The notes under the pieces: model-generated | What the model was told of the DNA's origin: nothing | Database searches by the model: none | Seen by the model: only the letters and a program-made list of their open reading frames with translations | Program-made: the position numbers and the translations under genes | Assembly: GCA_025617745.1 (NCBI GenBank) | Contig: CM046855.1 | Coordinates: 19,437,880-19,501,879 of the forward strand | Direction: 5' to 3' | Length of the DNA: 64,000 nucleotides | Source of the DNA: Heliocidaris erythrogramma | Lineage: Eukaryota; Echinodermata; Echinoidea; Camarodonta; Echinometridae | Shown here: in pieces, positions 31,732 through 63,911 of the stretch | Layout: every line of letters starts with the position of its first letter | How positions within the stretch are numbered: the first letter of the stretch is position 1

Positions 31732-32089
31732 TATCACAAGAACAGAGTAGAACTAAACAAACTCCACAAGTCACAAATAAACCAACTCCAAAAAGCATAA
31801 CAAAAGACATGGCAACTCAGACAGAAACAGTGAAAGAAGCAGGATGTCAGACATCTGACTTCATGCAGACTGATCAATCCTTGATAACACTACTTATAGG
31901 GACACTGAAGATTTGGGATTCAAAATCAGGCAAGGAGAGAGAGCAGGAAGTCAAGTTGTTTGTTGAACGCTTATTCCCGGCATTGAAGCGGAAGAAAGGC
32001 AGAGAGAAAAAAACACAAATTCAACTAACAACTGATGACAAAAGAAAAGAATGATGTCTACAAATTTTTATTGTTCATTAAACAGCTTA

Positions 32090-35000: not shown

Positions 35001-35574
35001 TGATAATACCTCCATTTATACAGCAGAACTTTTTGCTGTGCTCATGGCACTTGAGTGGATTGAAGAATATCAGCCTGTACATGTATGTATTTTTATGGAT
35101 TGCTTAAGTGCCATTCAAGCCATTTCGCAGTTTAATCCTGGGAATAAACTAGTATGTGATATAAGATTAATGTTACTAAATATTCATAATCAGAATTGCA
35201 GGGTGGCCTTTGAATGGATTCCTGGACTTTCTGGAATCTGCGGAAATGAAGAGGCAGACCTACTGGCAAAGCGAGCTAGTAAAAAACAGAATATTGATAT
35301 AACTTTACCATTAACAATCACACAAGCTAAACACACACTAAAAGCAAAATTAAAAGGAAAATGGCAAGTACAATGGAATGAGTCTAAAAATAAGAATTAT
35401 AAACGAATTGAAAGAAATGTAACCTTAAGCCATAACCCGAACGGTCTGTGCGATGAGTGCTTGATATATGATGATGTTGAAAATGTATTAATAAACTGTC
35501 AAAAATATGAAGAAGAAAGGAGTCTATTACTAAAAAGGCTGAATTACACATGGAATCAATTAACACTTATTTAA
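32090..35574 (+). pseudogene. LINE ORF2 (endonuclease, reverse transcriptase, RNase H), broken
   Basis: Endonuclease: VILQWNAQSLVAHG, CLQETWLKED, then IICGDFNSHNSLWGS and WGSDHHLILIEI, carrying the expected Asn, Glu, Asp and His motifs. Reverse transcriptase: SYRPIALTCTMCKLMERMI, QSGFRKGRNTKDHI, FLDLEK (motif A), GIPQGSVISPTLFN and SQYADDIAIW (YADD catalytic box). RNase H: YTDGSFD, TAELFAVLMALEW, FMDCLSAI and GNEEADLLAKRAS. Frame changes occur near 32,230 (a T run), 32,820, 33,815, 33,900 and 34,785, so no full protein can be made. A cysteine/histidine tail PNGLCDECLIYDDV follows. It inserts by target-primed reverse transcription in the family. Confidence 0.85.
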
Positions 35575-42383: not shown

Positions 42384-45300
42384 ATGATCATTATGGCTCA
42401 TCTACAAGTAAAGTGGCTGTGCATCAGCGTCATCTTTGCAGTCTCTGCATCCTTTGCTTCGTCTTCCAACTCATTTCACTTTGATCAAAGTGACACCCAC
42501 CTCTCGGTGAGTGCGAACGACGTCCTCATCATTGACCACAAACTGTCCTCACCCTTCCTCTTCATTGGCTTTGGATCAATAACGACTCGTAGTCAGTTTG
42601 GTAACTACAGGATCGCAGACTACGTGGAAAGCAGAACTCCTATGGAAAATTTCTCTGTCGGAGAGCAGAAGACTGGGGAAGGAGGCATTGTGTCAACAAG
42701 GGTAACCTTCAGTTTGGTAGGATGTGATGAACAGGTAAAGTAATGCACAAGTGACAACAAAGCTGTTATTTAATGGGGAAATTGAAAAAAAAATGACAGA
42801 TCAATGGAACCCACATAAAATCATTGCTTTGAAATTGATACAAATTATTTCTGTAATTCTTAATTCGAGAATAATTCTTATAGATAAGAAGGCCTGGTCC
42901 CAAGACATGTTCATGTACCTGTTGAAGTACCTGTTGAAAATAACTAGTTTTAAATACAGTACATGTAGACTCTATATCTATATTAAGTAAAGGCCGGCTT
43001 TACTTTTTAAGTTGTTAAGTAAAAAATGAAGTGGTTGAAGTATTTAACTGAAGTATGCCATTTGTTTTTGCATGTAGAGGTGTCATAGGGGGTGTTGCAA
43101 GAAAGTTGCAATCATTTGCAAATCCCCCAAATCAGTCGCAAGTCTTGCAATATTGATTGCAAGTTCTATTTAAAATACATGTATCATATTTGCAATCATT
43201 TGCAAATGGGGAATTTGCAATTGATTGCAACTTTCTTTCAACACCCCAATAGTCACATACATCTTAAATACTTGACTGGACATGTGAAGGTTATGAGTCC
43301 AATCCCCTCTATGGCACTCATGTCCTTTTTCAAGACATCAGTCTATATTTGCCCCTCTCCACCCAGGTGTACTGAATGGGAACCTGGTAGGAAGGTAACC
43401 CTTGAATGCTGTGGGTAGTGAAACCAGGAGCTTATCTAACTTTAGGGAGTGCCTTGTGTGGTGGGTACGAGCAACTATACAAGAAGCTGATATTCTTGTT
43501 ACAATTGTATTTATTTATCATCTTTTTCATTGGTGCAATACTGCAATTCCTTTGCTGCAGGGAAGTGTTGCTGTAGACTTTGTGTCCTCACCAGATGACA
43601 TGTACGTTGAGTTTGTCGAGGTACCACGTGATGTCAACCGACTATGGATCCGCCTTCATGCTGAAGAGGGGGAGAAGGTGTATGGAGGGGGAGAGCAGTT
43701 TACCTTCTTTGACATGAGGGGGCACACTTTCCCTCTCTGGGTTCAGGAACAGGTAAGTGTGTATTGTCAATCTGGAGAGAATAACCTAGGCAAAGACTGT
43801 CTGTTGTGGACTCACTATAGAGCTATGTGCTTAGCCTTGATGTAACCAATATCTTAATTAGTTTTAAAGATAATAATGGCTGTTATGACTTTTTGACCAC
43901 TCATTTGAACAGTGCATTTGGGGCTAGTGCTTCTTGTTATTCACCTAGAGAATTTACTTCGACAAAGAAGTACAACTGCCACAAATACAGCATATTAAAT
44001 AATATGAAATTTAGTCAGATTTGTGCTCTTTGTCAAACTCTGCTTTTAAGTGTATTATGAAATATTTCGAAAATTATAGGGGAATTAACCTCAAAATATA
44101 AATGTGCTTATATTCAAAGATGTAATCTATTCCTTCTTGTTGTCCTACGTAGTTTTGCATTAAAATATACGAGATGGGTATAAATCAAGATTTTTTTTTC
44201 AGCAAAATTTATCGTCTGCTAGCGATACCTGGGGACTGCCATTTTCTTGATGTGTACATGAAGATATTTTAAATCCGAATGCAAAATTGTCTTTCTTCCT
44301 GATACAAAATCCCATTTGAGATTTAAAATAGTGAACAGATATATACATATATTCTAAAAACAACAATGTGTTTTATATATCTTTGAAAATTACTATTTTA
44401 CTAAATACACATATATTTTCTTGATACTATGACGTAGGCGACAGAGCAAAGAAATTCAAATTTATGGATGATAACTTTCCCCGAGTGTCAGTAGTGACAA
44501 ACTATGCATTCACCCGCTTTGAGATAATGGACTTCAGTAGTCAGAATGCGCATTGTATAAATTATGTTCTGGTCTGCCAGGCAATTTCAAGAAATCGATT
44601 TCTATTTAGCAAAACCAGAGAATTTAAAAAGAAATCTATAAATGTCAAATTTTAGGATATATGTATACACCTGGGGTGGTATTCTGAGTTTTATTTCATC
44701 TTGATTTTAGTGAAAAGATTTTAATTATCATAAGATATTTTAATTTGCAACATTTCTTCGGTGTTTGCGCAGATGAATTCCACGTACGCAGCCACTTTTG
44801 CTCAGTTATTAACCAATGGTGCGCCATAAGCGTACATTTTGTTATGACAATTAAAATTATTTCACTAAAATCAAGATAAAATAAATCTCAGAATACCACA
44901 CATGTTATGTATTTTCCATCATATATGGGGATTTTTTGTAATGAAGAGAAGCAATTTAGCTCGAGGATTAAAAGAAATCTTCCTGACGGGAACGGTTTCC
45001 AGTGGTCCATGTACAACTCCATATCATCAAGAAAATGGCAGCCCCCATGTAAACTGTTAGCAGATGATACCATGTGCCAGAATGTCTTTATTTAAACCCT
45101 TTCTGATATCTTAATTCTAAAGTGATACAGGCCAATGATTAAGAATATATTACACCTTTTAACATAAGTACATTTATATTCTAGTGTTAATTCTCCTTTA
45201 AACATTTAAAACAGATTGTGAATAAAAGTGGATGAATACCAAAGACAAAGTAGAAAGGCTTTAAAGTTGTCACCCTCTAGCCGTGATTGAAATTCTCTTG

Positions 45301-48300
45301 ATTCTCACAATGATTAATTCTCCCATCAAAGTCCAACGTAGGTGTTTCAAAGTAAAGGAAGGTGGGGGGGGGGGGGGGATCTTGGGCCATGGAGTGACAA
45401 AAACTTCTACTTGGCAAACAGTGTATCTTTAAAGAATAACCCTGTAAAGTTTCATATCTGTATCTCATAACGTTTTTTTAGTTATCACTAGTTGATTATT
45501 TAATTAAATATTTGTGATTTGACAATTTTGCATTGTGTACATTACATATCATATGGAGAAATTTACATTTTGGCACAGCGCAGCGATTTTGGACGATGCA
45601 CGGTGCCCGTTGTTCAAAATTTTATCAATTTGGCATCAAAAGATGTGTAAGACTCTAGCCGAAAAAGTCATGACAGCTTGCAGCGCCAAAAAAATTATCC
45701 TTGAAAACATATCGAGGTGCGCAGTTTTATGTAATTGGTAGAGCACAAGGAAAACCCCATACCACAGAAAGAATGTTCTGCTTGCGGGTAATATATCAGT
45801 AGATTTCTGGAGTTACATACTAGGTGGCAATGAACTGTAGGGTTGATACTGCTAGTTTTTAAAATGTGTTGTCCTGCGATTGTTCAAGAAATACACAAGA
45901 AAAATTTAATGAAATACATAAAACTTATAATGATGTATGTGCATGTCTATGCACACAATTATGTTCACCAATTCAGTTGTTCTCTGATAGTTGATGTGTA
46001 ATAGTGTATCACTTCAAGAACTGTCTTTTTTTCTTGTATTCTGCAGGGAGTTGGTAGGAATGGGAGTTCGATGGTAACACTGCTCGCAAACAATCGCGAT
46101 AAGGGTGGTGGCGAGTACTATACCACCTACTGGGCTCAGCCAACCTTCCTCTCATCCAGAAAATATTATGCGCATTTCACTACCACCAGCTACTCTGAGT
46201 TTGATTTCCACTTTGATGAATTCCATGAGGTGTACATTTTAAGCGACTCTCCAGGACAGATCCATTTCTTCACAGGGCCATCCTATGTGAACCTGGTCAC
46301 ACAGTTTACTGGGTTCCAGGGAAGACAACCTCCTATGCCAGAGTGGGTCTACAATGGAGTGGTCCTTGGTCTACAGGGTGGCACAGAAAGGATGCTACAC
46401 TACTTGAAAATGGCACAGGTAATATGCTTACACTAGATATACTGTATCCATTTGATATGACATGTAAGCCACACATGAAACTTCTGCTGTATTTTTGTAG
46501 TTTTTATTTTTTATAGTGGTTTACCCAAATGCTTGTTTGAAATAATAATAATAATATAATATAAATTGAGAGATCTTGTTAGCCTATTTAAAATTGCGAC
46601 AAATTTGTCAGCATATTCACTTAAACTTTACCCTATAACACAAACAAGTAGCTACAAATATTGTACCCCATGTGTTTTTTAGTATCTTATATGCTAAGTG
46701 TCATTTTTATGTGTTAACATCATATTGCCTATGGAGAAAAACATAAGAGTGACTGAAAAGTTCATACTCAACCCTTCCAAAAATGAAAGCTACCTTTCCT
46801 CACAGAATCTCCTGAATTGGAAAGCACTCTAGACGGAGTTCATGGTGTCTCTGTCTTCATACCAGTTTTAAGTAAAGGACAAAGTTTTGTTAATGTTACA
46901 TTTTAATCAAAATACCAACAGTATGCAGCATTACCAAAATTGTTTTCATCTTAAATGTTATTTAAGATGATGACCATTTGAATTGTACATGCAGCTCTTT
47001 TTCATGATAGACTTTATCTTTTTTTTTTTTTAAAGGATAATGGTATCAAGGTCAGTGCTGTTTGGATCCAAGACTGGGCAGGACGGATTAAGACTTCTTT
47101 CGGGAGGCGCATCTTTTGGAACTGGCAATGGGATCCGAAACACTACCCTGGTCTTGATAAAGTCATCGGTGATCTGAAAACGCAGGGTATCCAGGTGTTG
47201 GTCTACACCAACCTTAACCTCAATCAAGAAGGAAACCTCTTTAGGGAAGCTGAAAAACTAGGCTATCTCATCCTGGACAAGGATGGAAATACTTATCGTT
47301 TGGACTATGGAGAGTTCTTTTGTGGGATAGTAGACATCACTAACCCCAATGCTGCACAGTGGTACAAAGACCGTATCATCAAAAAGAATATGATAGAGTT
47401 AGGGATCAGTGGATGGATGGCTGACTTTGGGGAATATCTACCAACAGATGCATATTTCAGCAATGGAAAGTCAGGTATGGAACTCCACAATGAATGGCCA
47501 ACACTGTGGGCTCAAATCAATCGTGAAGGAGTCGAGGAAGCAGGCATGTTGGGCGAAATCCTTTACTGGATGCGGGCAGGTTTCAGTGGAGCGCAGCGGT
47601 ACGGGGTGATGACGTGGGCTGGAGATCAGTTTGTTGATTTTAGCTTGAGCGACGGCATTGCGTCTGTCATTCCAGCTGCTCTGTCGCTTGGCATATCTGG
47701 CTTTGGATTGTTTCATTTCGACATTGGAGGATACACTTCTCTATTCAACTACACGCGAACAGAGGAGTTGATGTTTCGATATGGAGAAATGGCTGCCTTC
47801 ACAACCATGATGCGAACACATGAGGGCAATCGCCCCGATGACAATCTCCAATTTTACTCTAATGAACGTACTCTCTCCCAGCTCGCTTCTCAAACAAAGA
47901 TTTTCTGTGCTTTGAACAGCTACAGGCGTGCAGTCATCAAAGAAAACACTGAACAGGGTATACCTGTCCAGCGTCCTCTGTTCTTGCATTACGATTCTGA
48001 CCCAAGATCGTATAACTTGCAGTATCAGTACATGTTTGGCCCTGATCTGCTAGTTGCACCCGTACACGAGTCTGGAGTAGAAACATGGGACGTCTACCTT
48101 CCTCCTGACAACTGGGTCTTTATGTGGGACGAGACCATTACATCCCTTGGTGGTGAGACCGTCACAGTGGCGGCACCAGTTGGTATTATTCCTGTCTTCT
48201 TTAGAAAGGAGTCCCAGTGGGCTGACTTGTTCAGGGATGTTAGGGATATCAGGAATAAAGTATATTCTGATCTTGATAATGGATACTGCTCTAAAGATAA

Positions 48301-48313
48301 GCCATGTTCATAG
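42384..48313 (+). CDS. Secreted GH31 sulfoquinovosidase-like enzyme, copy 1
   Basis: Four exons: 42384-42734, 43561-43752, 46047-46418 and 47036-48313, all GT/AG and phase 0, giving 730 residues. A signal peptide (KWLCISVIFAVSASFA) opens the protein. An N-terminal GH31 beta-sandwich (YGGGEQFTFFDMRG) is followed by the catalytic barrel. Nucleophile: D435 in GWMADFGEYLP. Acid/base: D502 in TWAGDQ. Sulfonate-recognition residues corresponding to E. coli YihQ Q262, Q288, R301, W304 and Y508 are Q291 (LGLQGGT), Q317 (IQDW), R330 and W333 (SFGRRIFWNW) and Y538 (FDIGGY). Expected reaction: hydrolysis of alpha-sulfoquinovosides such as sulfoquinovosyl glycerol from algal sulfolipid, outside the cell or in the gut lumen. 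YihQ has about 678 residues, so the length fits. It lies 2.9 kb upstream of a paralogue. It ends DNGYCSKDKPCS without an anchor. AATAAA candidates are at 49,198 and 49,432. Assignment to GH31 is near certain; the substrate is inferred. Confidence 0.9.
43088..43247. mobile_element. MITE in intron 1 of the first GH31 gene
   Basis: GGGGGTGTTGCAAGAAAGTT at the left and AACTTTCTTTCAACACCCC at the right. TTGCAATCATTTGCAAAT and related TTGCAA words fill the interior. 160 bp, no coding capacity. Confidence 0.82.
44075..45202. mobile_element. Foldback MITE in intron 2, with a nested MITE
   Basis: TATAGGGGAATTAACCTC at the left and GTGTTAATTCTCCTTTAAA at the right. The arms pair further inward (ACTGCCATTTTCTTGATG with CATCAAGAAAATGGCAGC). 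A related 656-bp copy lies in intron 1 of the neighbouring paralogue at 53,683. A second MITE is inserted at 44,675. Confidence 0.75.
44675..44901. mobile_element. Nested MITE, about 227 bp
   Basis: GGTGGTATTCTGAGTTTTAT at the left and ATAAATCTCAGAATACCAC at the right, with further pairing ATCTTGATTTTAGTGAAA to TTTCACTAAAATCAAGAT. It sits inside the foldback MITE and so is younger than it. Confidence 0.82.
45203..46046. other. Rest of intron 2 of the first GH31 gene
   Basis: Contains a G run at about 45,363-45,378. Nothing else recognised. Confidence 0.5.
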
Positions 48314-49874
48314 ACTAATATTTTCTGTATTGTAAATTTTGTTTTGTACGTTTGTATGAAGAAATTACAAATTTATTGAGTATTGAGGGCTCTATTATAT
48401 TTCTGTCATTCTTTTAAACAGGGTATGAAGAGGTGTTAAGGAGGGGATTCTATAAGGGGTATACAGTATGGTATTCAGTGCATTGTATTTAGTATTGAAT
48501 TATGAGTCATTATGCTGTTACAGTAGGCCTACTTTTTCTTTCTTTCTTTAAAAAAATTGAATATTTTAGTTATAGAACAGGATATTGTGTGGCCTTTTGT
48601 CTCTGAATGAGGAAATTAACATTCACTGTTATATTGATGGAACACCCTCCTTAAACATAAAGTATGAATTGAGTGCAATTATCTTCTGATTCTGATCCAT
48701 GTGTAATATCATTTATTTGTATCATCCTTGCATGTATTTTAAATGCATTGTGTGTGTGATTTAGTCTTTCACAATATGCATGATACATACACAAAGTGTC
48801 ATGGATCATAATAATTGTAAATGATATTATGAAAGAAATTAATGTGCTTATGAACAAGGAATACTTAATATGCATATGGATTGTGATAAGTATATCATGC
48901 AAATGCATGTTTTGTGTGTGATGCATGGGTGTGGGTATGTGTTTTGGCTTGCATGCTCAGTAGCCAGTTGTCATGTTTAAAAGTAATGAAAATTCTTCAC
49001 TTAAAGGTTCTAAAATGAGATGAGTCAGTATCTACATGTATATATAATTGTATGAAAGAAATACAAATGTTACAATCATGTTTACAAGATTTGTACATGG
49101 TCTATACATGCCAATATAAATGTATGATGTGGTATTAATTATTGATATTATTGAATTTAAAATTCAGCTGTTCCTTCTTCAATGCATGGTGATCTGAAAT
49201 AAATTTTCAATGTACATGCACTTCATCCGCAAGAGAATTGTCATTAAGTATATTCTCTATGTGTAGGCCTATTTGCCATGAATAGTAGTGAGCTTTCCAA
49301 GAGTAATTGTGCAGGTCCCTAGTCAATATTTATTTTTTCGCAATAAGATTGATCTTGATTGGTCTTGTTTAAGAAGTTGTGATGGCAGGCTGGTGAAATC
49401 ATAATCACTGTATTTTCTGTATTATTCTCAAAATAAACACTCAAAATATAAGAGAATGCTTGTGATGAATGAGAGAGAGAGAGACAGAGACAGACAGAGA
49501 GGAAGGGGGAAATGAAGAGGAGGATAGAGAGAGGGAGAGAGGAAAAAATTATATTGTTTTTAAGTAGTAGTCATTTGCTAAGGATAGTTCGGGCACTTCG
49601 AGAATATAATGAGTATAAAAACCCTTTATCGATTACTGTGTAGGATTGATTTTGACATTTGACATTTGAAAAGTCGAGAAGGCAGGTAAATGGTGAACTT
49701 GTGGCAAATATAAGAACAAGAAAACAAATCGAAGTTTATAGCACATGTACCTGGACCCTGTCTTATAGAGATTGATTTAAGATCATTTAAGACCACAAAT
49801 CGCAAACTTACAGTCTCCTGATCTATTGATCTCACGTTTTTAATCATCTGCAACTCTTTATAAGACTGGGCCCT
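48314..49874. other. 3' flank of the first GH31 gene
   Basis: AT-rich, with AATAAA at 49,198-49,203 and 49,432-49,437 as polyadenylation candidates and a (GA)n stretch at about 49,470-49,540. No gene recognised. Confidence 0.5.
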
Positions 49875-50905
49875 AGGATGAATGAAAGAGAGAGGTGGGG
49901 GACAGACAGAGAATGAAGAAAGAGAGAGAGAGAGAGTGTGGCAGAGAGAGACAAGAGAGAAAGACAAGAGAGAAAGAGAAAGACGGAGAAAGAAGAAGAT
50001 GGAATATTTTTTTGGACTTGTGCTCCCCCCCCCCCCCCCCGGCAAGAAAATCCTGGATCTGCCCACTGATGCTACAAATGGCATAGATACAGGCAAGACA
50101 GGCAACACCCCCCCCCCCCCCCTTTGCATGGCGAAACAAGAGGGAAGGGAAGAGAAAAGGAGAAAGAAATGGAAGGGGGAAATGAATGTAAATTGAAAAT
50201 GACAAGATCCCCTTCCAGTACCCTACCCCTAATAAGTCACATTTCATCCACCGATTGATGTCGGTGCATCCCCTACATATTATGATGCCAGCCGCCCACT
50301 CGGACCACTGGGACCTTCGCTACACAACTTGCCAACTGTAAATGCATACAGTCACCCGCATTATTGATGTTCGAAATATTTCACTTTCATGTTTCTTTTC
50401 ATGTTTTTTTCGTTTCATGTTTCTTCCCTTTATTCTCTTCTTTGATCTCCGTTTACGCACTTATACCCCAAATTATTTCGAAGGCCATGTAACTATGCGT
50501 CAAACCTTGAGCTAACTGTGTCCTAGACCGAAAATTCTGTCTCTCGTTCGTTAGCTCTCTAATTGCCCATTAATAATACCACTCAGGACATAAGCTGATC
50601 ATGACTGAATACTAGAACAACAGTAGACATCCGTGATTGAATGAAATTAGGCTTTAAAAAGCTCAAAAGAAAAAAAAAATCTCAACATGATTATCACTGG
50701 GTTATGGGGAGTCAAGGTGTCACTTTTTGATGGGGTGGGGCGCACCAAGAAAGGTGCATGGAATGCGCAAAGGCTGATTGGCCATATCCATCAACAGGGT
50801 ATGGGCGGGGAGGGCCGGATCATCTTCATTTTACATTGTCGTCCCTTTTTTCGCCATTCTATGGGGCCGGGGGAGCAGGAGCCTCACATGTAGCTACGCC
50901 ACTGG
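49875..50905. repeat. G/C-run repeat pieces between the two GH31 genes
   Basis: Purine-rich (GA)n sequence is followed by C runs at about 50,026-50,040 and 50,107-50,122. TGTAGCTACGCCACTGG at about 50,889 is the usual right end of the hAT-like family. The interior AGGGAAGGGAAGAGAAAAGG resembles those at 12,390 and 17,480. Exact borders are unclear. Confidence 0.45.
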
Positions 50906-51086
50906 TATTCACAAACTTCTTCTACTAGTATGAAATACAGAGTAAACTTTACTGGCTCTTGGGCTTAGGTCGGATGGAGTCCAAATATTTAGCGTCAGTT
51001 TATTGGGTTGTCGGTATATAGAAGCAGATCAGAGTTCACGCATAATCCATGCCAAAGTTTAGATAAAACACGCCCACTCCGGTCCC

Positions 51087-51233
51087 ACTATATAGTATAA
51101 CTCCATAAAAAACACAGGTCCATGTATAGGCCTCTACTCATTCTCAGGGGTCAGTCGCAGTAAAGACGATCCCTTCTCATCAGCTTCTGATTCTAATCGT
51201 AATTCGACATCGACTAGGTCATAATTGCCAACC
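51087..51233 (+). promoter_or_regulatory. Candidate core promoter of the second GH31 gene
   Basis: CTATATAGTATAAC at about 51,088 could serve as a TATA box, with pyrimidine-rich CTCATTCTCAGGGGTCAGTC (about 51,137-51,156) as a later initiator-like site. The start codon at 51,234 sits in ACCATGG, an ideal context. Inference only. Confidence 0.4.
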
Positions 51234-54200
51234 ATGGCATTTCAACCACTGCATGCCATGACGGTGGTCGTCGTCGTCCTCGTCGTATCGTCTTCGCATG
51301 CTTTCGACATTAATTACAACACGACTCATTTCTCTGTGTCTCTGGATGGAGTCGATCTCATTCATCATTCTCCTGAAGAGCCGTTTCTTTTCGCCGGCAC
51401 TGGCATACCTACCTTCGAAGGCCAGTTTGGAAACTATGATGTCGAGGATTTTGTCGAGGAGCGCGTTGCCCTTATCGACTTTGTTGTCGACAACCAGAAT
51501 CCCAACGAGCTGCATTTTACTTTCAGTCGACAAGATTTGTTGCAGGTCAGAACTCAGCCTAATGAATATATCAGTCCAGTATTTTATTATAGGATTTTTT
51601 ATTATAGGCTGGCCACACGAATTCATTTTATGTGCATTCAAATTCACCGATTCTGCCACCGTAGCTGTGTTTTATCATTCAAATTAGTTTTTTAGCATTC
51701 GATTTCATAAAACTGTCCTTCAAAAACATTTTGTTTGCATTCGAATTAAAACGTGTTTCGTCTTTGGAGAATTTTCATTCAAATTAAAGCGAGACGATTC
51801 GCGATTACGTAATAACGCCTTCCGTGAATTCAAATTCATTTCTTTGCATACAACTTCAAACGCTTTGCAGACAAATTAAACACGTTAATCATGTTAATCT
51901 CACCCAATCTTCATATTTTTTTCCTGTTTTTATTGATTACCCAATCTTCATATAAATCCGCTAGCTTCGTTCCGTGCTATATTCATTTTAAATTATACGG
52001 TATAGTGAGCAGCAAACATTTCACTTTTCAAGTTCAAGTTTCAAGTTTATTTTATTTATTTCAACTCAACTCGACTTAACATCATAGCAGTTTAACAATT
52101 AATTACATAGTAAACCATAAAAATGGATATTCCATACAATACAATACCCAAATATATGATGAAAAGAAAACATATATAACAAATGTGTATTTTATATAGT
52201 TTATCCTTTTGTAAAATTAGAGCTGAGGAAATGGAGGGATCCCACTAAAAAAGTTGCTCCCACTAGGGTTGTATACTAAATCAACACTATTTAGCAACTG
52301 AACGATCATATATAATTTTTCATACCTAGTCATATCACCGACATGTAGAATTAGCAAAGTGTGTGGTGTGGGACATTACATGCTGGGACATCGTTTTATT
52401 TTCATGGTTGTTTATTTGTTCATTTTTTTGTTGTTGAAAATTTATTCGGCGGTCATGATCTCTTTTGGGCCATTTATATTTGTGTACATTATATGTAGTC
52501 TTTCTACCACAGTCATAATCACAATCACCATCCTAACCGTGGGGGTGGGGGGGGGGGGGCATGTCCCCCCTGTCCCCCGCCTGTTGATACCCATGACCCT
52601 TAGGTGGTATGCAAGGAGTTATTTCTTAAACACATCACCGGATATTGATAAAGAATAAAGCTCACTTTTGTTAGATGAGGAAAATGTGCATATACCATAT
52701 GTTTGTAATGATAGGCGAATTTGAATGAAAACTTTGTTATGTTGAATGACCAGATGTGAAATTGAATGATCTGGACGTCCGCTTTGCCAGCGTTGACAAA
52801 TTTGAATGCAAATTGCGCATTTTGTAACCGGTTGTTAAATTGAATGATACAAGTGCAAATTCCATTGACCAAAGAAGTAATTCAAATGAAAGAAGTAATT
52901 CAAATGAACGAAGTGCAATTTTGAATGTCATTCTCAAGCCTACATCGGTATTTCGCGAATTTGAATGACCCATGTATCAAAACGAATGAAAAGCTTACGA
53001 AGTTGGCCGAGAAAACCTATAATACAAATGCTTCCTTGAAAACTAAATATCGGTATTTCTTTTTCTCTTGTTCGTTAAAAATGAGTGTAGCTGGAAATAT
53101 ATAATGAAAAAATGTCTTTGAATCATTAAACTCAAAAGCGTAACTCAAACATATAACATTTTAGAGTTCTTAAATCATTTAGATGTAAAACAATATACAA
53201 ATTGTCGCAGATGTTGTTCGAACATTTAGTGTAACTTGTGATCAGTTACATTGACGATTGTTGACGGTATTCAGATTTTTGCTGTTTAAAGAGGATTATC
53301 CAACTGTTGACGGATACTGATATCTCGCCAAAAGAAGGAATTGCTCAAAGCTCCAAATATGAAATCGAAAGAACCAAAAAGTGACATCTTGACCCTGGAA
53401 TTCTATATTTAGTGGATTTTTGACAGAATTGTGACATGTGTGAATTACATTTTTGAATAATGTCATTCTAATTATTTGAGTGCTTCGAAATGAAGAACAC
53501 TCATATAATGAGTCTCAATTAAAATTCTAATCAAATAAGTAATATTGGGACATGTAAAGATGCTTTGAAAACCTCGGCAAAGCCTATTACACCCCATTTT
53601 CAATTGTTTTTTGGGGGGAAATAGCTATCGTGACGACCTTGCGTATACTTTTCTTCATGCTAAACAAAACAAATAGTGTAAATTTAAAGGGAAATTAACC
53701 TCAGCGTATGAATTAGCTTATTTTGAATGGTGTAGTATATGCCTCTTATTTGATACATGCAATTTCATGTAAAAACACAGGATATAGATATAAATCACTA
53801 TTTTCCAGCCAAGTTATCGTCTGCTAGCAATAATAAGGGGGCTGCCATTACTTTATGTGTACACGAACATATTTTTCATCCCAAGTAAAATTTCCTTCAT
53901 CGTTAACTTGTAATTGATTTTTAGAGGACAAATATATATTAGATAAAGTCACATATTCTGAAATGTAAGTTTAGTTTTATATATTTTTTAAAAGGTCTTA
54001 ATTTGTTCATAAAAAATATACTTCATAAAAAATATACGTCAAGGACGGAGAATTGACGTCAAGGACGGAGACAATCGTAACAATACCAAAACAAAGCGAG
54101 GAATCTGCTTTACAGGATGGCTATTAGAACTCATGGGTCGTCAATTATCTAGGCCCATGGCCAATAACAATCGTAATACAATCAGAACAAAGCGACGTAT

Positions 54201-57200
54201 CTATTGTAAAGGTAGGCTATTATCAATGCATATGGTACCTAATGATCCGTGTCATGCACAAAATGGCAGCCTCCATGGAAAGACGTAGCAGACAATAGGT
54301 GCATCTAGAATATCACGTGGGGTTAATTGTCCTTTAAAGGAAGGAAAAACGAACGTCAATTATAACGCTATACATAAAGGCTATACTATAGCAGGGCGCG
54401 GCAACGGGGGGTGGAGGGGGCTGCAGCCCCCCCCCCCCCCAAAAAAAAAAAGTGTAGTTACCAATATTCGAGCAACCGACATCTCATATTTGGACAGCGA
54501 ATCACTATAGCTACGTTTTACATCCTACGGAGTATAATTATTTTGATGACTATGTTGATGTGTCAAAGATTCTGCTCACTATATATAGGCCTAGGCTAGC
54601 TCTCTTCGCGTTGCTCGCGAAAGTTGATTTTTGTGCAAGAGAGATCAGCTCCCCCCCCCTGCAAAATTTGGCCCATATGCCCATCAAAAACGCAACTAGT
54701 ACTGCGAGTTCTGGAGCATTTGTAATGAATGGCAATCACTTAGCCAGCAGCTCAACATTTCCTGAACAGATCCGTTTTGGCGATAAGACCTCTCGTCAAC
54801 TTTCATGATCTCAAAAACAATAATTTGAATGTTCGAAGCTCCTGCAATACGTGTATAAATGTTCAGAATATAATCCTATATAATTATATCATATAATATT
54901 GTTGTGTATAACATCTTTTCTCCTGCTTTCTGCATTGTCTTTGTTTTTGCATAACACTTTCATAACAAAATCAAAGCAATTTCAAACAGCATCATTTCCT
55001 AAAATGTGGAGAACTTCGCTGATTTTAATAATTTTCATAAGATTTATGTGTAATTTCAAAGTCAGTTCTCTTTATGCTGTCATGACTGCATCCTGGCCTT
55101 TAATGTGCTGTTATCTATTCTCTCTAATATATCATTCTGATAGTTTGATGGGCGGTCTTCCGAATAAAATAAACTTGAAAACTTGAAACTTGAATTACTT
55201 TCAATATTTCAGTTAAGAATCATTTACCTAAACCTTATTCCAGATGCCAGCGAAAATGTATCATTTGACGCTGTTCATGTCCCCCTTTCTATTCTCTCAT
55301 GTCATCAGGGGCGGCGATCACGAGGGGACACGCCCCGCCCAGCCGCCGGAAATTTTCAAGACTGAACAATTTGTGTAGCAAACAATGAGTAAAAGGCTGC
55401 AACGCACTGTTTAGGCTCTGAAGTGCTTTAATATTCAAAATAAGAGTTTTTCGTATTGTAATATCACAGACCTACGTTTTATTTAGGTAGAGATTCCCCT
55501 GTGTTTTACAACAGACAAAGTATACTCCCTTTATAGCACATATTGCAGGGGGTAGCAATTGAGGGGGATGGAGGATTCATCTCCCTGGAATTATTAAAGG
55601 GTTTGCCCCCCCCCCCCCCCCCCCACCGGAAATTAAAAATACTCGAAATAATGAACAGAATTTACTGGGGAATCCGCCAAAATGCAAACCTTTTTCTCCC
55701 ATAACAACCCCCGGTCGTGACAAGAAATCGCTGCCCCTGCATGTCATGCTAATAGTTTGGTGAACAGCACCTCTCTATTATCAGTCAGTCATGGAATTGG
55801 ATATTTTTGACCAAACAAGGATGTCCATGCTTTCAAGATTACAAATCATTAAGAAACGTTCCGTCCTGCATTATTGTTGTTTTAGTTTTCTTTCTCTCCT
55901 CTTCCGTTTCTCCATCCCCTTTCTACAACTTTTACCTTCAACTGTCTCTTCTAATACACTTAGAATTAATTTGGGCTTATAAAATGCATCTGTTTGAAAG
56001 TTGTCCTAAAACCACTTTACATCCAGTCTCTAATTTCGGGTTTTTCTTTTTTCTTTCTTTCTTTCTTTCTTTTTGTACTGACTTTTTATTAAATTTTCGT
56101 TGCATACTTTGTCCATAAACGTTGGAATAAAACATTTAGAACGTTGGAAAACGGGCATCACTGCATTAGGCAGCACCGCGGTGTGGGTCCAGCCATGGGG
56201 AAGGTAGGGGTGGGGTGCAAGGAACTATTAAGTGGGTGAAATACAAGATACCAGCTTCAGATTAGGCAGGGTGAGGCATACGTGGCGGTGGGGGGGGGGG
56301 GGGGGGACGGCAAGAATCTCAGGCAACCATGATCTCATATTATTTTGACAGACGGATGGTATCTTTGTTGATTTGTATAGCTTCTCTCAAATATTTTAAA
56401 GACAAAATTACTATAAAGGGCTATGTATGGATATTCCCAAAATTATGTCACTTAAATAAAGTTTCAAGAGTTTATTTCGCTCGCTTATACACGCTCACAA
56501 AACTGAGAAACTGGGTTGAAATTCGGACAAGAGGCGACAGTCCCAGCGAAATTGTTCAAATAAGCCTATTATGGAGGTTTCGCTTAGGTTAAAAAATGCG
56601 AATCTCTAGTTACCAAACCTACCAAAAGCTTATAAGCTTTTGGTAAGTTTTCAATCTATATTTGTGTTTGCATAGGGAAGAATAAATATTATGTTCAGAA
56701 ATGGCCTATCACGTAAATAGACATTTCAGCCTTATCGAAAAAGATCATGCCGAAAAATTCTAAAAGAATAATAACAGAATAACAATGTCTCGACATATTT
56801 CCCCCTGTTCCTGTAAACATTTCATTTTCCGTAGTCATTATCAGTGACTATAGTGGCTATTCACAAAGCCTGCCAGAAATACAAATAGTACTCTTTTCTT
56901 GTAGGGTATGTGGTTGTTTGTATAAAAAAATTTATTTTAAATAACTGAGGGGTGGTGAATGTATTTGGAAAATTTCAAATTTGAGATGTTATGCACGCAC
57001 ACGAATATCTAACATAACCCATATACCTTGATCAACCCCAATCTTCAGAAAAGAGGTAATGAAAATAGAATGGAATGATAATGACGGATAACGACTATAA
57101 TTATAGCAGTGGCGTAGATACAGGAGACACCGTGGGGGGGGGGGTGGCACGCGCCTCTAGTTTAATGGCCCACATAAAAACACCAACAAAAAATAGGGGA

Positions 57201-60200
57201 AAAGAGGGGGAAAGGAAAGTTAATCTGTGAGTGGCTTTGAAAATGCATTTAGCTGTTTACTCCACAGAGTTATATGACTCTAACAAAGCGGTGTTTCAGA
57301 TGTATCGACTGTTTGTCATGTTTGTATAAAAGTTTGTATAAAATGCGTCTTCTCATTTGATTCAGAGAGAAAACAAACCGAACTCATACACACAGGGTGA
57401 GCATATTTAGTATTCCACCTCATATTCACAATGTAAGCTTTTTTTTATTTGGTGAGGATTGTTACGGGGACAGATAATGTGAAGGTTTCTACTTATTGAT
57501 AATGTGTCTGTTCTCGTGGTCGTTTCATCGTCATTTAGATATATTTTTTCTGTTTTCAATTACATTAGGTTTTGAATAATATGTTTTTGTGTCATTTTTG
57601 ACGCTTTCAGTTGTTACTTGTCCTTGACCATCATCAACGTCATCATCTCTTCTACTTTTATATCCCCTCCCTTTTCCGTCCTTACACTTGTTAATATGAT
57701 TATTATATTTAGATAAATGTGAATTCCTTATATTTGGTTCTAAAGTGCAGCTTAGTAAAATTGATATTAATTGCATCTCATGGTCTGGCCACACAATTTA
57801 TCTGTCACAAACTTGTCGCAATCTTGGTGTTAATGATTGACTCACATAATTATGACAATGTCTAATCAAATTTCAAATATCTGCAGATCAGTTAGGTACC
57901 AATTACGTAATATCGGTTTTATTCAGAGATATTTGTCCAAGTCTGCCACTGAAAAAATAGTGCACGCCTTAATTTCCTCCTGTCTCGACTTTGGCAATGC
58001 CCTTCTGTTCAATTTATCCCAAAATCTGTTGTCCAAGCTCCAGAAGCTTCAAAATGCTGCGGCTCGCATTGTTACTCTGTCCACCAAGCGTATCCATATC
58101 TCGCGTGTCCTAAATCATGGAATAGCCTTCCTGAAGACATCAACAAGTGTATAACATCTGATTCCTTTAAAAATCATGTAAAAACATTTCTGTTTAAATC
58201 TTAATTAATTTCTACATGCACCTTGAGCAATCCACAGAGTGGATTTGGCGCTATATAACATTTATTATTATTATTATTTAATTACGAATAATTATGAACA
58301 GTCAGGAATAATTACACATGATTACGTAATTTTGTTCAGGTGCAATCTTCTACGTTATCTCCACTTTCCTTCCATTCCTAACATTATTTCAAACCAATGT
58401 GTCGAATGATTTTCATCAAGAATAATTGAGAGTGTCATCAAATGCTCTTTTCTTAGGTTGAAGTCCGCTTCGTTAGCGACGATGCTGATTCTTCATACTA
58501 CGGTGAGTTCGTGAGCGTTGCTGATGGTATCAATCGAGTCTGGATGCGCCTTATTGCTGAGGAGGATGAACGCGTGTATGGTGGTGGATCACAGTTCTCT
58601 CATTTTAATATGCGAGGATATAACTTTCCAATTTGGATCCAAGAACAAGTAAGGTCAAAACCTGAGTGCTATTTCTGGAGGTTAAACCATTCGATATGAT
58701 TGATTGCCTACAAATATGCGCTTTCAGATTTTATCGAAAGGAAGGTTTGGATAAGCCCGTGTAAGCAAATAAACCTATAAACGTGGGCGGCGTGAGGGGG
58801 GGGGGGGGGGGGGGGGGGTGAAGAGGCCACGGGCAAAAATTCTTTAACGATTATACCGTAAGCTACTCCTTGAAAACTATTGTTTCGTTGCTATCCCATG
58901 CAGAATTTTCATTATTCCAACTTATAGGACACTATAAGGCCACATCCTTGATAGTGTTTTTTTTTAAATTCACAATAAACTGAGATCTCAGCCTCTTAAT
59001 TTCCTTCGAGATGAAAGCTGAAATCCCTTTGTATCGACTTCTTAGGAAACGAGAATCCAAGATCTCGGCACCTTCACTTCCTTGGTGACGAAAATCCAAG
59101 ATTTTTGCACCTGGACGTTCTTGGTGACGAGAATCCGAGACCTCTGCATCTTGACTTTCTTGGTGACGAGAAGCCGAGATCTCTGCATCTTGACTTCCCT
59201 AGTGACGAGAATCCGAGATCTCTGTATCTTGACTTCCTTGGGTAGGATAAGCCGAGATCTTTGCACCTTGACTTCCTTGGTGACGAGAAGCCGATATCTC
59301 TGCACCTTGACTTCCTTGATGACGAGAAGCCGAGATCTTCGCACCTTCACTTTCTTGGGGACGAAAAGTCAAGATATCGGCACCTTGATTTCCGTGGGGA
59401 CGAGAATCCGAGATCTCTGCACCTTGACTTCCCTAGTGACGAGAATCCGAGATCTCTGTATCTTGACTTCCTTGGGTAGGATAAGCCGAGATCTTTGCAC
59501 CTTGACTTCCTTGGTGTTGAGAAGTCAAGATCTCGGCACCTTGACTTCCTTGGGGGAAGAGAAGCCAGGATCTTGGCACCTTGCCTTCTTTAGAGACGAG
59601 AAGCCGAGATCTCGGTACACGGACTTCCTTGGTGACAAGAAGCCAAGATCTCGACACCTTGACTTCCTTGCGGGACGAGAAGGTGAGATCTCAACATCTT
59701 GACTTACTTTGGGACGAGAAGCCGAGATCTCGACACCTTGACTTCCTTTCGGACGAGAAGCCGATATCTCAGCACCTTGATTTCCTTGGAAAAAAAGAAG
59801 CCGAGAACTCGGCATTTTGGCTTTACTGGTAATGAGAAGCCGAGATTTCACTATCTACGGCCGGATTTCACCGAAACATAAAATGCCGATGTTCCGAATC
59901 TCGGCAACTTACTTACAAACAATACTGACACTCAGACTTGGCAACTTGACAAACTTGAGACGAGAATAAAAGAACCCGAATACTAAGATCTTGAATTTCG
60001 TCAGTTTTGTTAAATCGACGTCCTTTTGACGAGAGGATATTATCCTAGATCTAGACATCTTCTACAGTATCATTATTGTGTGAAGTTCTGTTTGTTTTTC
60101 TTTGTTTCGTTTCGTTTTGTTTTGTTGTTTTGTTGTTTTGTTTTTGTTTCTTTACTGTGGTGCTAACGTCAATCATTTGTATTTCTATGAACAGGGAGTG

Positions 60201-63200
60201 GGACGGGACAAGAATTACGAGATCACTTTCCTAGCCGACCAGCGGGACGGTGGGGGTGGCGATTACTATACCACCTACTGGGCCCAACCAACGTTCCTCT
60301 CCTCTCGCAAGTACTACGTTCACTTCGACACCACCACCTACTCTGAACTCGACTTCCGAGCTGATGACTTCCATGAGATCCAGATCTGGGGGGACTCCCC
60401 GGGCAGGTTCTACTTCTTTAGGGAAGACACCTACATGGAGCTTGTGGAGGACCTGACGGGATTCCTTGGCAGGCAACCAGTGCCTCCTGAATGGGTGTAC
60501 AGTGGCACCATCTTAGGGGTGCAAGGGGGCACCGAGCTCATGCTCGACTACATTCAGATGGCTGAGGTGAGTGAGCAGCACCCATTTTGATAATCCTTTC
60601 CTCCTTAAAATGCATGATGATGTTTACAACTCCATCAGCACTTTGTAGATACTGACATACTTTCCTATGCCATATCAATCAACTTAGAATAACCTTGGCA
60701 AAGGATGGTTTATTGAATGAATAAAGAAAGGGGTATTCAGGGCATAAACTGTGTGCCTATCATGAAACAAAGTCTTAGCTATTCTAAGTTGCTTAACTGT
60801 TAAAAAGCAAGACATTATATGATTATAATTTTCATTTCATTTTCATGTTCACTTCAGGACCATGGAATAAAAGTGAGCGGTGTTTGGATCCAGGATTGGG
60901 TTGGACGCATCACCACGTCTTTCGGGAGGCGTCTGTTCTGGAACTGGGAATGGAACCCCGAGCAGTATCCAAACCTCGATACGGTCATACCAGAACTAAA
61001 ACAACGAGGCATAAGAGTACTCGTCTACGCTAATCCAAATCTCAATAGATTAGGAAGTTTATACCAAGAGGCCGCACAAGGAGATTACCTAATCAAGAAC
61101 AGTTCTGGTGATCCTTACATAGTTGATTACGGTGAATTCTTCTGCGGGATTGTCGATTTCACGAATCCAGACGCGGCTCAATGGTACAAGGACCGTATCA
61201 TCAAACAGAATATGCTGGACTTGGGTGTCAGTGGTTGGATGGCGGATTTCGGAGAGTACCTTCCGATTGATGCAGTGTTTCACAGCGGCGCTAAGGGCAC
61301 AGATATCCACAACCAGTGGCCCGCCATTTGGGCCCAGGTAAACAGAGAAGGGGTGGAGGAAGGTGGCAAACTAGGAGATATCCTGTTCTGGATGCGTGCA
61401 GGCTACACAGGATCACAGAGGTACAGTGTTATGACGTGGGCTGGTGATCAGTTCGTCGACTATGGCCTTGCTGATGGCATTGCATCAGTGATTCCTGGCA
61501 CATTGTCCCTGGGCATGTCCGGTTACGGGATGAACCATTTCGATATCGGAGGCTACACATCTCTCTTCGACGTCACCAGGACTGAAGAACTCTTTTTACG
61601 CTATGCCGAAATGGCAGCCTTCACCACCATGATGCGCACACACGAAGGGAACAGACCCGACGAGAACTGGCAATTCTACTCCAGTTCACATACCATGTAC
61701 GAGTTCGCCCGACACACGGAGATATACGTAGCCCTCAACGACTACGTCAACAGTACCATCCGTGAGAACCACGAGCGTGGCATCCCCGTTCAGCGACCTC
61801 TCTTCCTCCATTACGAGGATGACGACAGTCTGTACAACATCCAGTACCAGTACATGTTTGGTCCCGATCTCCTTGTCGCTCCCGTGATCGAGCAGGGTCA
61901 AGAAACCTGGGAGGTTTACCTTCCTGCAGATGATTGGGTATTCCTTTGGGATGAAAGCATCACTTCGAACGGAAGCGAGACGGTTACAGTTCCTTCTCCT
62001 ATGGGCCACATACCAGTCTTCTTCAGGAGGCAATCTCAGTGGGCCGACACTTTCAGACAGCTAAGAGATATCGAGGCTGGTAAGACCTAGTTTCTAATTT
62101 CCTAATAAACTGCATTGATAGGTACTGTTTTTAACATTTCAGAAAATCTTCTCCTGTGGTTGAAATGTTCAAGAATTGCTGTTTTCAATAACGTATGGGA
62201 AGTTTTTAAGTAAAATATTTGCAAAAAATTGTTTTGTTTCCCCTGGAACCAACATGTATACTTTCTTTAAAACTCCCGTTCACCCAAATCATAAAGAAAT
62301 TGTGACAACGTTTTTCTTTTTTTTACAGTAGGTCTATGACTTTATGTTGTTCAAGTTTTCTTGTTTGTTCGATTGTTTTTGTATTTGTTTTTTGTTTTGT
62401 TCTTTTGTCTGTTTTTGGGGTTTTTTGTTTGTTTTGTTTTGTTGCTATTGTTGTTTTGTTTGTTTGTGTGTGTATGTGTGTGTGTGTTTTGTGTGTTGTT
62501 GTTGTTGTGTTGTCGTTTTTTGTTTTTTTTGTTTGTAATCTCTATAACATATTGAACTTATATTCCATTATTGGGTTTAATACATGGTCACATAGCCCAC
62601 TTACTTCTCCATAGTGAGCAGGTTGCTCAAGTAAGCTATAAAGTGGAATATTGAACATGTACTGAACAACCGTATAAAGAAGAGGGAAGGTATTTCCGGC
62701 TAGTATAGATAATACCAGTATTTTTAATATATCTATATTACTGCATTCTTACTTTATTGAATGTTTTCTTTTGTTTTAGTTAATTGTTCTTATCTCTTGC
62801 TTTAGTCTATTGCATCCAGTGGCTTATCCAAGGATTGTGGAACCCGGGGCAAACAATATAAATGCGCCCCTACATCGTACCTCATCTGATAAAAAAATAC
62901 GAACCACATGCATCCCCTTTAAATCAATGTTACAGCACTGTATACGTAAACATGGTATACAGACATGCCAACTAGTATTCCTCACCCAGTTTCGCTCCTA
63001 TTACACTTGATAAGGGGGTACCAACATCTATGGATGTCTGGAATTAATTTGGAACACAACATTACCATAATGCATCGCACCTGTCTCCTCGAACAACCTT
63101 TGGTTATCCACTCTGGGTTACAAGAACTGTTCTAAATTTTTGCCTGTGATACACAATGCCATACCCCCTTATCAACCGTAAAAGGTAAGGAATACGATTT

Positions 63201-63911
63201 TAGGTTGGCAGCACTGGGTATATGATGCACTTAACCCAGGATTGGTAGCCAAAGTTTGATGAATATACCATTCAAGGGAGGTAGAATGTTTTGCATTGTT
63301 ACCCTTCAAAAAAAAAACACGCAATTCCTTATATGCATTTCACCCTTATAGAATAAAGTCGGAAGAGACCACAGCAACTTAGCGTTTCTTTCAAAATTTG
63401 AACATTGAAAAAATTAATGCTAATCTTTTAACATCTTTCTCTTTTCGGGGATCAAAATTAACAAAAACCTCGAAATACATTCGAGGAATTTAGCAGTGTA
63501 AACGAAAGTTTGGATTTTTTTTCAAATGCTGAACCTTTAAAGATGCTACTTTATGCTACATTGGGGCGCAGAATGATATTTTTACAAGATCATGATAAAC
63601 ACTACCGAGCAAAGCACATAATCATGACAGAGTCTGAAATGGCCTGAAAATGATCGTCTTTTGTGAAATTGCATTTTCCACATTCGGAAACGTTGGTTAT
63701 TTTGATTCCATTTTGATATCATTCTACTTCTTTTTTTTTAATATCTTGCACTCCATCTTCTCTTCGTCTATACTTTCCTATTTTGTTGTCTTCCATCTAT
63801 ACAGTAACGGTCACTCCAACCGAAACCATGACGACGGCAGGAAGTTCTACTTTCATGACATCATACTCTCTTCTCGCCATCTGCCTGGTTGTGATGACGT
63901 CATTGTGGTAG
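51234..63911 (+). CDS. GH31 sulfoquinovosidase-like enzyme, copy 2, candidate GPI-anchored form
   Basis: Exons 51234-51545, 58457-58648, 60195-60566 and 60858-62079, plus a candidate last exon 63805-63911; 734 residues. Signal peptide MTVVVVVLVVSSSHA. Catalytic D422 (GWMADFGEYLP) and D489 (TWAGDQ). The YihQ-like QQRWY residues are Q278 (LGVQGGT), Q304 (IQDW), R317, W320 (SFGRRLFWNW) and Y525 (FDIGGY). Exons 2 and 3 match copy 1 in length (192 and 372 nt), showing tandem duplication. The exon 4 donor (GAGGCTG before GTAAGA) joined to the acceptor at 63,804 reads on as VTVTPTETMTTAGSSTFM then a hydrophobic SLLAICLVVMTSLW stop, the layout of a GPI-anchor signal with a likely site at AGSS. If the intron is not spliced, translation stops at 62,090 after EAGKT, and AATAAA follows at 62,104, giving a soluble form. 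Function is inferred as for copy 1; the last exon is a prediction. Confidence 0.87.
51604..53016. mobile_element. Possible TIR element with ATTCAAAT subterminal words, in intron 1
   Basis: CATTCAAATT and relatives recur at the left (about 51,636, 51,677, 51,829) and in inverted form (GAATTTGAATG, AATTGAATG) at the right (about 52,716-52,965). GGCTGGCCACACGAATTC and GAAGTTGGCCGAG are weakly matching inverted ends. A G run is at about 52,543-52,558. The borders and family are uncertain. Confidence 0.4.
53017..53682. other. Intron 1 sequence, nothing recognised
   Basis: AT-rich sequence without a supportable feature. Confidence 0.5.
53683..54338. mobile_element. Foldback MITE in intron 1, relative of 44,075-45,202
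   Basis: TTTAAAGGGAAATTAACCTC at the left and GGGGTTAATTGTCCTTTAAA at the right. Shares AAGTTATCGTCTGCTAGC and GGCTGCCATT-type words with the copy in the neighbouring gene. AAAATGGCAGCCTCCATGG at about 54,261 is the paired right arm. Confidence 0.78.
54339..55305. other. Intron sequence with a G/C-run piece and a LINE-like tail
   Basis: CAGGGCGCGGCAACGGGG followed by C and A runs (about 54,392-54,451) is a broken hAT-like MITE. AATAAAATAAACTTGAAAAC at about 55,165 resembles a retroposon tail; its inverse TTCAAGTTTATTTTATTT lies at about 52,043. Confidence 0.4.
55306..55739. mobile_element. hAT MITE with perfect 8-bp target duplication
   Basis: CAGGGGCGGCGATCACGAGG at the left and AAATCGCTGCCCCTG at the right, inverted. 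The exact direct repeat CATGTCAT flanks it (55,298-55,305 and 55,740-55,747). A long C run is at about 55,608-55,624. 434 bp, no coding capacity. Confidence 0.9.
55748..57689. other. Intron sequence with G/C-run pieces
   Basis: A G run is at about 56,291-56,306. CAGTGGCGTAGATACAGG at 57,107 is a left hAT-like end followed by a G run, without a visible right end. No gene recognised. Confidence 0.4.
57690..58278 (+). mobile_element. CR1/L2-clade LINE, 3' fragment
   Basis: Encodes KCEFLIFGSKVQLSKIDINC and TCRNLGVND, then RYQLRNIGFIQRYLSKSATE and LQNAAARIVTLSTKRIHISR, then SWNSLPEDINKCITSDSFKN. These are the RT thumb and C-terminal tail typical of CR1/L2-type LINEs. The segment between ISR and SWNSLP is shortened relative to the family. 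TGGCGCTATATAAC and a (TTA)n tail end the element at about 58,278. 5'-truncated, with stops, inside intron 1 of the GH31 gene. Confidence 0.8.
58649..59039. other. Intron 2 of the second GH31 gene, left part
   Basis: A G run is at about 58,796-58,818; otherwise unremarkable. Confidence 0.5.
59040..59850. repeat. 39-bp minisatellite, about 20 units
   Basis: Units read CTTGGTGACGAGAAGCCGAG, ATCTCTGCACCTTGACTTC with variation, including near-palindromic CCGAGATCTCGG. The unit length is a multiple of three and few units carry stops, so several overlapping frames on both strands stay open. It lies wholly in intron 2 of the second GH31 gene. Confidence 0.9.
62091..63804. other. Candidate last intron of the second GH31 gene
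   Basis: AATAAA at 62,104-62,109 follows the read-through stop by 14 bases and could end a short transcript. A G/T-rich microsatellite spans about 62,370-62,545. CCAGTGGCTTATCCAAGG at about 62,817 resembles a broken hAT-like end. A pyrimidine tract precedes the acceptor CTATACAG at 63,804. Confidence 0.5.

What the first reader, a model, noticed from the sequence alone, without database searches (positions are those of the whole stretch)
42384..63911. Tandem pair of animal sulfoquinovosidase candidates with the complete sulfonate-recognition set
Both predicted proteins are GH31 enzymes with intact nucleophile and acid/base aspartates. All five residues known in E. coli YihQ to recognise sulfoquinovose (Q262, Q288, R301, W304, Y508) are present. 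The spacings Q262-Q288 (26), Q288-R301 (13), R301-W304 (3), D405-D472 (67) and D472-Y508 (36) are identical, and Q288 to the nucleophile differs by one. The YihQ numbers are from memory of the published structure. I know of no characterised animal sulfoquinovosidase. A grazer on algae, whose plastid membranes are rich in sulfolipid, would profit from a secreted one. The pair could open a host-encoded sulfosugar route.
Basis: partly seen in the sequence, partly recalled or inferred. Interest (0 to 1): 0.88.

Follow-up and report, generated by a model that had tools for sequence, protein, structure and literature searches.

The report
Sea urchin sulfoquinovosidase gene pair
A sea urchin carries two neighbouring genes for what look like secreted enzymes that cut the sulfur-bearing sugar off algal membrane lipids, a step so far characterised only in bacteria, and close relatives of the genes occur in many other invertebrates.

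Summary
The window is from a sea urchin (1.06 Gb assembly). Two tandem genes, 42384-48313 and 51234-63911, encode GH31 proteins of 730 and 734 aa. Both keep YihQ's Q262, Q288, R301, W304, D405, D472 and Y508, at the spacings claimed.

They are the only two such genes found in the assembly. Relatives in echinoderms, hemichordates, amphioxus, molluscs, a brachiopod and a bryozoan form one clade with full support. 27 of 40 are already named 'sulfoquinovosidase(-like)' in databases; I found no paper on an animal SQase.

Both have hydrophobic, signal-like N-termini. Gene 2 ends in a GPI-like tail, shared by 33 of 43 animal-clade rows and 0 of 72 bacterial rows.

Best reading: secreted (gene 1) and surface-tethered (gene 2) SQases acting on dietary sulfolipid. 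Activity, expression site and the fate of free sulfoquinovose are untested. A host sulfosugar pathway is not supported: YihT has no match. Transfer from bacteria is likely, but the root is unresolved.

The parts
42384..42734 (+). gene 1 exon 1: hydrophobic signal-peptide-like N-terminus and start of the N-terminal domain
   Evidence: N-terminal hydropathy 2.10
43561..43752 (+). gene 1 exon 2 (192 bp, same length as in gene 2)
46047..46418 (+). gene 1 exon 3 (372 bp, same length as in gene 2), holds Q291 (= YihQ Q262)
47036..48313 (+). gene 1 exon 4: Q317, R330, W333 (= Q288, R301, W304), nucleophile D435, acid/base D502, Y538 (= Y508); stop; no C-terminal hydrophobic tail
51234..51545 (+). gene 2 exon 1: hydrophobic signal-peptide-like N-terminus
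   Evidence: N-terminal hydropathy 2.35
58457..58648 (+). gene 2 exon 2 (192 bp)
60195..60566 (+). gene 2 exon 3 (372 bp), holds Q278 (= YihQ Q262)
60858..62079 (+). gene 2 exon 4: Q304, R317, W320, nucleophile D422, acid/base D489, Y525; donor GTAAGA at 62080. Read-through without this splice stops at 62090
63805..63911 (+). gene 2 exon 5: Thr/Ser-rich stretch and C-terminal hydrophobic tail like a GPI-anchor signal (by eye and hydropathy, no predictor run). An acceptor giving an exon from 63841 also keeps the frame
   Evidence: matching tail in Lytechinus pictus P0001; hydropathy 2.11

Best explanation
The pair encodes two animal members of the GH31 sulfoquinovosidase subfamily. Inferred mechanism: after gut lipases strip acyl chains from algal sulfolipid (SQDG to SQMG to sulfoquinovosyl glycerol), the enzyme binds alpha-sulfoquinovoside with its Arg/Trp/Tyr/Gln/Gln pocket holding the C6 sulfonate and ring. 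A retaining double displacement follows, with the nucleophile Asp (D435 in gene 1, D422 in gene 2) and the acid/base Asp (D502, D489), and releases alpha-sulfoquinovose plus glycerol or lysolipid. Gene 2 is probably held on the outer cell surface by a C-terminal GPI-like anchor, in the way of vertebrate brush-border disaccharidases; gene 1 lacks the anchor and is probably soluble and secreted. Shown here: gene structures, residues, subfamily placement, predicted fold (on an orthologue of gene 2), copy number, animal clade and tails. Inferred: sulfoquinovosidase activity, location in the gut, dietary role and the fate of the sugar, which the animal may pass to its microbes.
Against: No activity, expression or localisation data. 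Animal-specific changes lie in otherwise conserved places: S503 to F (38 of 43), W524 to S or Y (42 of 43), Y337 to N (28), L416 to F (30), F453 to W (34), and could alter specificity. 7 of 43 animal-clade rows have lost part of the motif, including Lytechinus P0004 of the gene 1 type (Y508 to F), so the pocket is not under absolute constraint. The root inside the subfamily is unresolved, so the assayed enzymes need not bracket the animal clade. Carnivorous relatives keep the gene. No YihT match. The signal peptide and GPI anchor are judged by hydropathy only, and the tail threshold (1.6) was set after seeing the values.
Confidence: 0.76

Rival explanations
1. The animal clade has shifted to another anionic alpha-glycoside, for example a 6-O-sulfated glucose or glucosamine residue of a host or algal polysaccharide; the sulfonate pocket now reads a sulfate ester.
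For: The recognition residues would also suit a sulfate ester in principle (inference). Animal-specific substitutions near the catalytic residues in sequence, above all S503 to F next to the loop that holds Y508. Members in carnivores and filter feeders (diets recalled).
Against: 36 of 43 animal-clade rows keep all seven residues exactly, and 88 of 92 invariant positions stand in each gene. SQDG and SQMG are present in sea urchin gut.
Confidence: 0.12
2. The proteins are SQases, but they work in the secretory pathway or on the animal's own lipids or glycans, not in digestion.
For: Three animal relatives without the tail end in KDEL-like letters: P0003 KDEL, P0009 HEEL, P0010 ADEL. The family is kept in non-grazers.
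Against: Gene 1 here ends KDKPCS, gene 2 in a hydrophobic tail. I recall no known animal sulfoquinovose conjugate.
Confidence: 0.08
3. Ordinary GH31 alpha-glucosidases or xylosidases with a chance resemblance, or bacterial contamination of the assembly.
For: Some relatives carry the database name 'alpha-glucosidase', and the PRK10426 model itself is printed as alpha-glucosidase.
Against: Seven GT-AG introns, equal lengths of exons 2 and 3 in both copies, placement inside a contig of at least 46 Mb, orthologues in other echinoids for each copy, and a wide gap to any non-SQase GH31.
Confidence: 0.03

Closest known systems
E. coli YihQ sulfoquinovosidase (GH31; PDB 5AED, 5OHT)
   Different: YihQ is encoded among the E. 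coli yih sulfoglycolysis genes and is cytosolic (recalled); the urchin genes have introns, signal-like N-termini and, in gene 2, a C-terminal tail, with no YihT match in the assembly.
E. rectale SftG (6PNR), BmSQase (8R56) and A. tumefaciens SQase (5OHS, 5OHY)
   Same: Same subfamily and fold; SftG and the A. tumefaciens enzyme are assayed, 8R56 is a covalent SQ-aziridine complex by its title.
   Different: The A. tumefaciens enzyme has K/E in place of the two Gln; the urchin pair has the Gln/Gln form. All are bacterial.
Animal proteins named 'sulfoquinovosidase(-like)' in databases (Lytechinus, Diadema, Asterias, Patiria, Ptychodera, Branchiostoma, Patella, Mytilus and others)
   Same: Relatives in one clade with 100 support.
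   Different: The names look like automatic annotation (inference). No paper listed or 70 describes one by its title or the start of its abstract. Some lack Y508 or more.
GH188 NAD-dependent SQases
   Same: Same predicted reaction; eukaryotic GH188 genes are reported in plants and a red alga (passages of PMC10755693).
   Different: Unrelated family with an oxidoreductive mechanism; no animal members are named in the passages read. Not searched for here.
Vertebrate brush-border GH31 enzymes (sucrase-isomaltase, maltase-glucoamylase)
   Different: Different subfamily and substrate; anchored at the other end of the protein (recalled).

Membership tests
GH31 sulfoquinovosidase subfamily | GH31 catalytic domain with paired Asp nucleophile and acid/base | tested here: met
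   D435/D502 and D422/D489 align with YihQ D405/D472; PF01055 matches in both genes
GH31 sulfoquinovosidase subfamily | QQRWY (or KERWY) sulfoquinovose-recognition residues | tested here: met
   QQRWY in both genes with YihQ spacing; not in YicI or four other GH31 proteins of the genome. The role of each residue is recalled from the published structures.
GH31 sulfoquinovosidase subfamily | Closer to SQases than to any other GH31 enzyme in sequence and structure | tested here: met
GH31 sulfoquinovosidase subfamily | Groups with the subfamily apart from other GH31 proteins in a tree | tested here: met
   117 subfamily rows apart from 5 outgroup rows, support 100; 65 rows apart from 2, support 99, with the mixture model. 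Outgroup branches are very long.
GH31 sulfoquinovosidase subfamily | Assayed SQases on both sides of the animal clade (function by bracketing) | tested here: inconclusive
   Bracketed in the LG tree but not in the mixture tree; constrained alternatives not rejected (p 0.659 and 0.444)
GH31 sulfoquinovosidase subfamily | Hydrolyses alpha-sulfoquinovosides and not alpha-glucosides | not testable with these tools
   needs purified enzyme
E. coli-type sulfoglycolysis (sulfo-EMP) in the host | YihT-like sulfofructose-phosphate aldolase in the same genome | tested here: inconclusive
   no match at E 0.001 in G000, without a positive control (could not supply one); the YihS search did not complete
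GH31 alpha-xylosidase / alpha-glucosidase (YicI, MalA types) | Reaches the curated score of those families | tested here: not met
   PRK10658 201 and 226 bits vs cut-off 606; MalA 138 and 148 vs 800

The most novel reading that the evidence does not exclude
An animal family, going back at least to the common ancestor of deuterostomes and lophotrochozoans and probably taken from bacteria, of secreted and cell-surface sulfoquinovosidases: invertebrates cut the headgroup of plant and algal sulfolipid with their own enzyme, the first host-encoded step of sulfoquinovose turnover in any animal, and echinoids have split it into an anchored and a soluble form.
Probability: 0.6. Interest if true: 0.8.

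Novelty: new member of a known kind. Interest (0 to 1): 0.62.

Why it matters
Sulfoquinovose is made on a scale of about 10 billion tons a year (abstract start of PMC10755693 in the listing). [quoted passage not shown] If the animal clade is active, the first step of sulfolipid breakdown in many marine invertebrates may be done by the animal and not only by its microbes. That is testable with chromogenic substrates and would change how sulfur and carbon flow from algae through grazers is drawn.

Tried and rejected
Contamination or processed bacterial insert: rejected because of introns, equal exon lengths in both copies, a contig of at least 46 Mb and orthologues in other echinoids.

Chance motif: rejected with YicI and four own-genome GH31 paralogues as controls (0 of 5).

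Clear proof of horizontal transfer and functional bracketing: I expected the tree to give it. The LG trees nest the animals among bacteria, but the mixture tree puts the root beside the animals plus three bacterial rows. The AU test does not reject that arrangement (p 0.659; the constrained tree was better by 9.9 log units) or all bacteria and the ciliate as one side (p 0.444). A joint origin of the animal and Paramecium genes is not rejected either (p 0.258). So direction and number of transfers stay open.

dN/dS between the two copies: synonymous sites saturated (pS 0.848, pN 0.260), only consistent with constraint.

Host pathway: YihT no match (no control).

Papers: searches of the held open-access library showed no animal SQase paper among the papers listed. 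Searches found none at all; some searches found 81, 69 and 16,444 papers, of which only 20, 20 and 15 were listed, as titles and abstract starts. A listed survey of glycoside hydrolases in animal genomes (PMC6011409, no occurrence of 'sulfoquinovos') was not opened. Two papers I recall as the GH31 subfamily classification and the 2018 SQase structure paper were not held, nor was PMC12780224, so what they say on eukaryotes was not checked.

Distribution: the protein searches list only the best 120 proteins each, so absence of vertebrates, tunicates, arthropods, nematodes, annelids, cnidarians and sponges from the lists does not show absence of the gene.
Full report
What is there. The window lies in an unnamed 1.06 Gb, 26-contig assembly, at C3:19437880-19501879. 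The closest proteins are from sea urchins (Lytechinus pictus 82-83%, Diadema antillarum 78-80% identical to gene 2), so the source is an echinoid. Two genes stand head to tail on the + strand, 2,920 bases apart. Gene 1 has four exons (730 aa). Gene 2 has five (734 aa), with introns of 6,911, 1,546, 291 and 1,725 bases. All introns are GT-AG. Exons 2 and 3 have the same lengths in both genes (192 and 372 bp), and introns 2 and 3 fall in the same alignment columns; intron 1 differs by two columns, in a stretch with gaps. I infer that the copies arose by duplication after the introns were in place. The short fifth exon of gene 2 (63805-63911) was found by splicing; of two acceptors that keep the frame, this one agrees with the tail of the L. 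pictus protein P0001.

YicI and four other GH31 proteins of the same genome do not have the set (0 of 5).

Copy number and spread. A protein search of the whole assembly found these two genes only; the hits outside them are GH31 proteins at 33% identity or less. Three protein searches (best 120 rows each) gave 40 animal rows: sea urchins, starfish, sea cucumbers, a feather star, acorn worms, amphioxus, gastropods, bivalves, a brachiopod and a bryozoan (39 with a named animal source, and P0012, unnamed, which groups with sea cucumbers). They also gave one ciliate, Paramecium. By my count 27 of the 40 are named sulfoquinovosidase or sulfoquinovosidase-like. With the window pair and an unnamed row (P0162) the animal rows form one clade, support 100 (SH-aLRT), in the LG trees (43 rows); with the mixture model on 23 animal rows it is also 100. 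Gene 1 groups with Diadema setosum P0003 and Lytechinus P0004, gene 2 with Diadema antillarum P0002 and Lytechinus P0001, each with support 100. The duplication is thus older than the split of those lineages.

Motif in animals. 36 of 43 rows keep all seven residues; five have F for Y508 (P0004, P0005, P0014, P0084, P0122); P0146 has QMKWDDF and P0147 TERWDDF. These last two are second copies in two whelks and may be on the way to another function. Animal-specific changes at places that are nearly invariant in bacteria include S503 to F (38 of 43), W524 to S or Y (42), Y337 to N (28), L416 to F (30) and F453 to W (34).

Address. A hydropathy scan gives strongly hydrophobic N-termini for both window proteins (2.10 and 2.35). 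A C-terminal hydrophobic tail (15-residue mean of at least 1.6 within the last 40 residues, a threshold set after seeing the values; lowest value counted 1.68) is present in 33 of 43 animal-clade rows and in 0 of 72 bacterial rows, whose highest value is 1.47. Gene 2 has it; gene 1 and its two orthologues do not. Three of the ten tail-less rows end in KDEL, HEEL or ADEL. No dedicated signal or GPI predictor was available.

Function. Three enzymes of the subfamily are assayed SQases with kcat/KM values in the 10^5 per M per s range (PMC11968277 section 5, read whole); 8R56 is an SQase by its PDB title. A bacterial row next to the animal clade, L039, sits beside a DUF4867 gene (275 bits) and a distant relative of the SQ isomerase SftI (198 bits, cut-off 700). 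DUF4867 occurs in sulfoglycolysis clusters, but mostly in other sugar clusters (passages). [quoted passage not shown]

What is not shown. The root within the subfamily is unresolved, so neither bacteria-to-animal transfer nor functional bracketing is proven. The E. coli aldolase YihT has no match in the assembly, without a positive control, and the YihS search did not complete, so what becomes of free sulfoquinovose is unknown. There are no expression or enzyme data.

Relation to the literature. [quoted passage not shown] PMC12890257 (passages) that no pathway is characterised in eukaryotes; PMC12330013 (passages) that the mammalian host does not degrade SQ. PMC10755693 (passages) reports eukaryotic genes for the unrelated GH188 SQases in plants and a red alga. 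My searches of the open library listed no paper on an animal GH31 SQase; only listings were seen for the long ones, and most subscription papers are not in that library.

Verdict. The host-pathway idea is not supported. As a protein family this is a new member of a known kind, already so named in databases; as biology, a host-encoded, secreted and partly membrane-tethered sulfoquinovosidase in animals would be new if the activity is confirmed.

Noticed in passing
window 3869-4831 (-): 320-aa open frame with a DDE_Tnp_4 transposase domain (122 bits); HARBI1-like by recall.
   Followed up: partly
window 30460-35574 (+), with a second RNase H-like piece at 24995-25453 (+): Non-LTR retrotransposon in broken frames: reverse transcriptase and RNase H by Pfam, zinc-knuckle and endonuclease-like stretches by eye.
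   Followed up: partly
window 19764-21176 (+): 470-aa frame with a zf-RVT domain, probably the C-terminal part of another LINE-type element.
   Followed up: partly
window about 59000-59900, second intron of gene 2: Minisatellite-like array that stays open in several frames on both strands.
   Followed up: no
P0146 (Nucella) and P0147 (Babylonia): Second SQase-like copies in two whelks have lost parts of the recognition set (QMKWDDF, TERWDDF) but keep both catalytic Asp: candidates for a changed substrate.
   Followed up: partly
P0003, P0009, P0010 C-termini: Three tail-less animal SQase-like proteins end in KDEL, HEEL and ADEL, which look like ER-retention signals.
   Followed up: no
P0089 (Paramecium sonneborni): A ciliate has a QQRWY SQase-like protein, 64% identical to the bacterial row P0017 over the tree columns; one common origin with the animal genes is not rejected (p 0.258).
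   Followed up: partly
G000 C4:17062359-17065773: A second tandem pair of GH31 genes in the same genome, of another subfamily, about 26% identical to gene 2.
   Followed up: no
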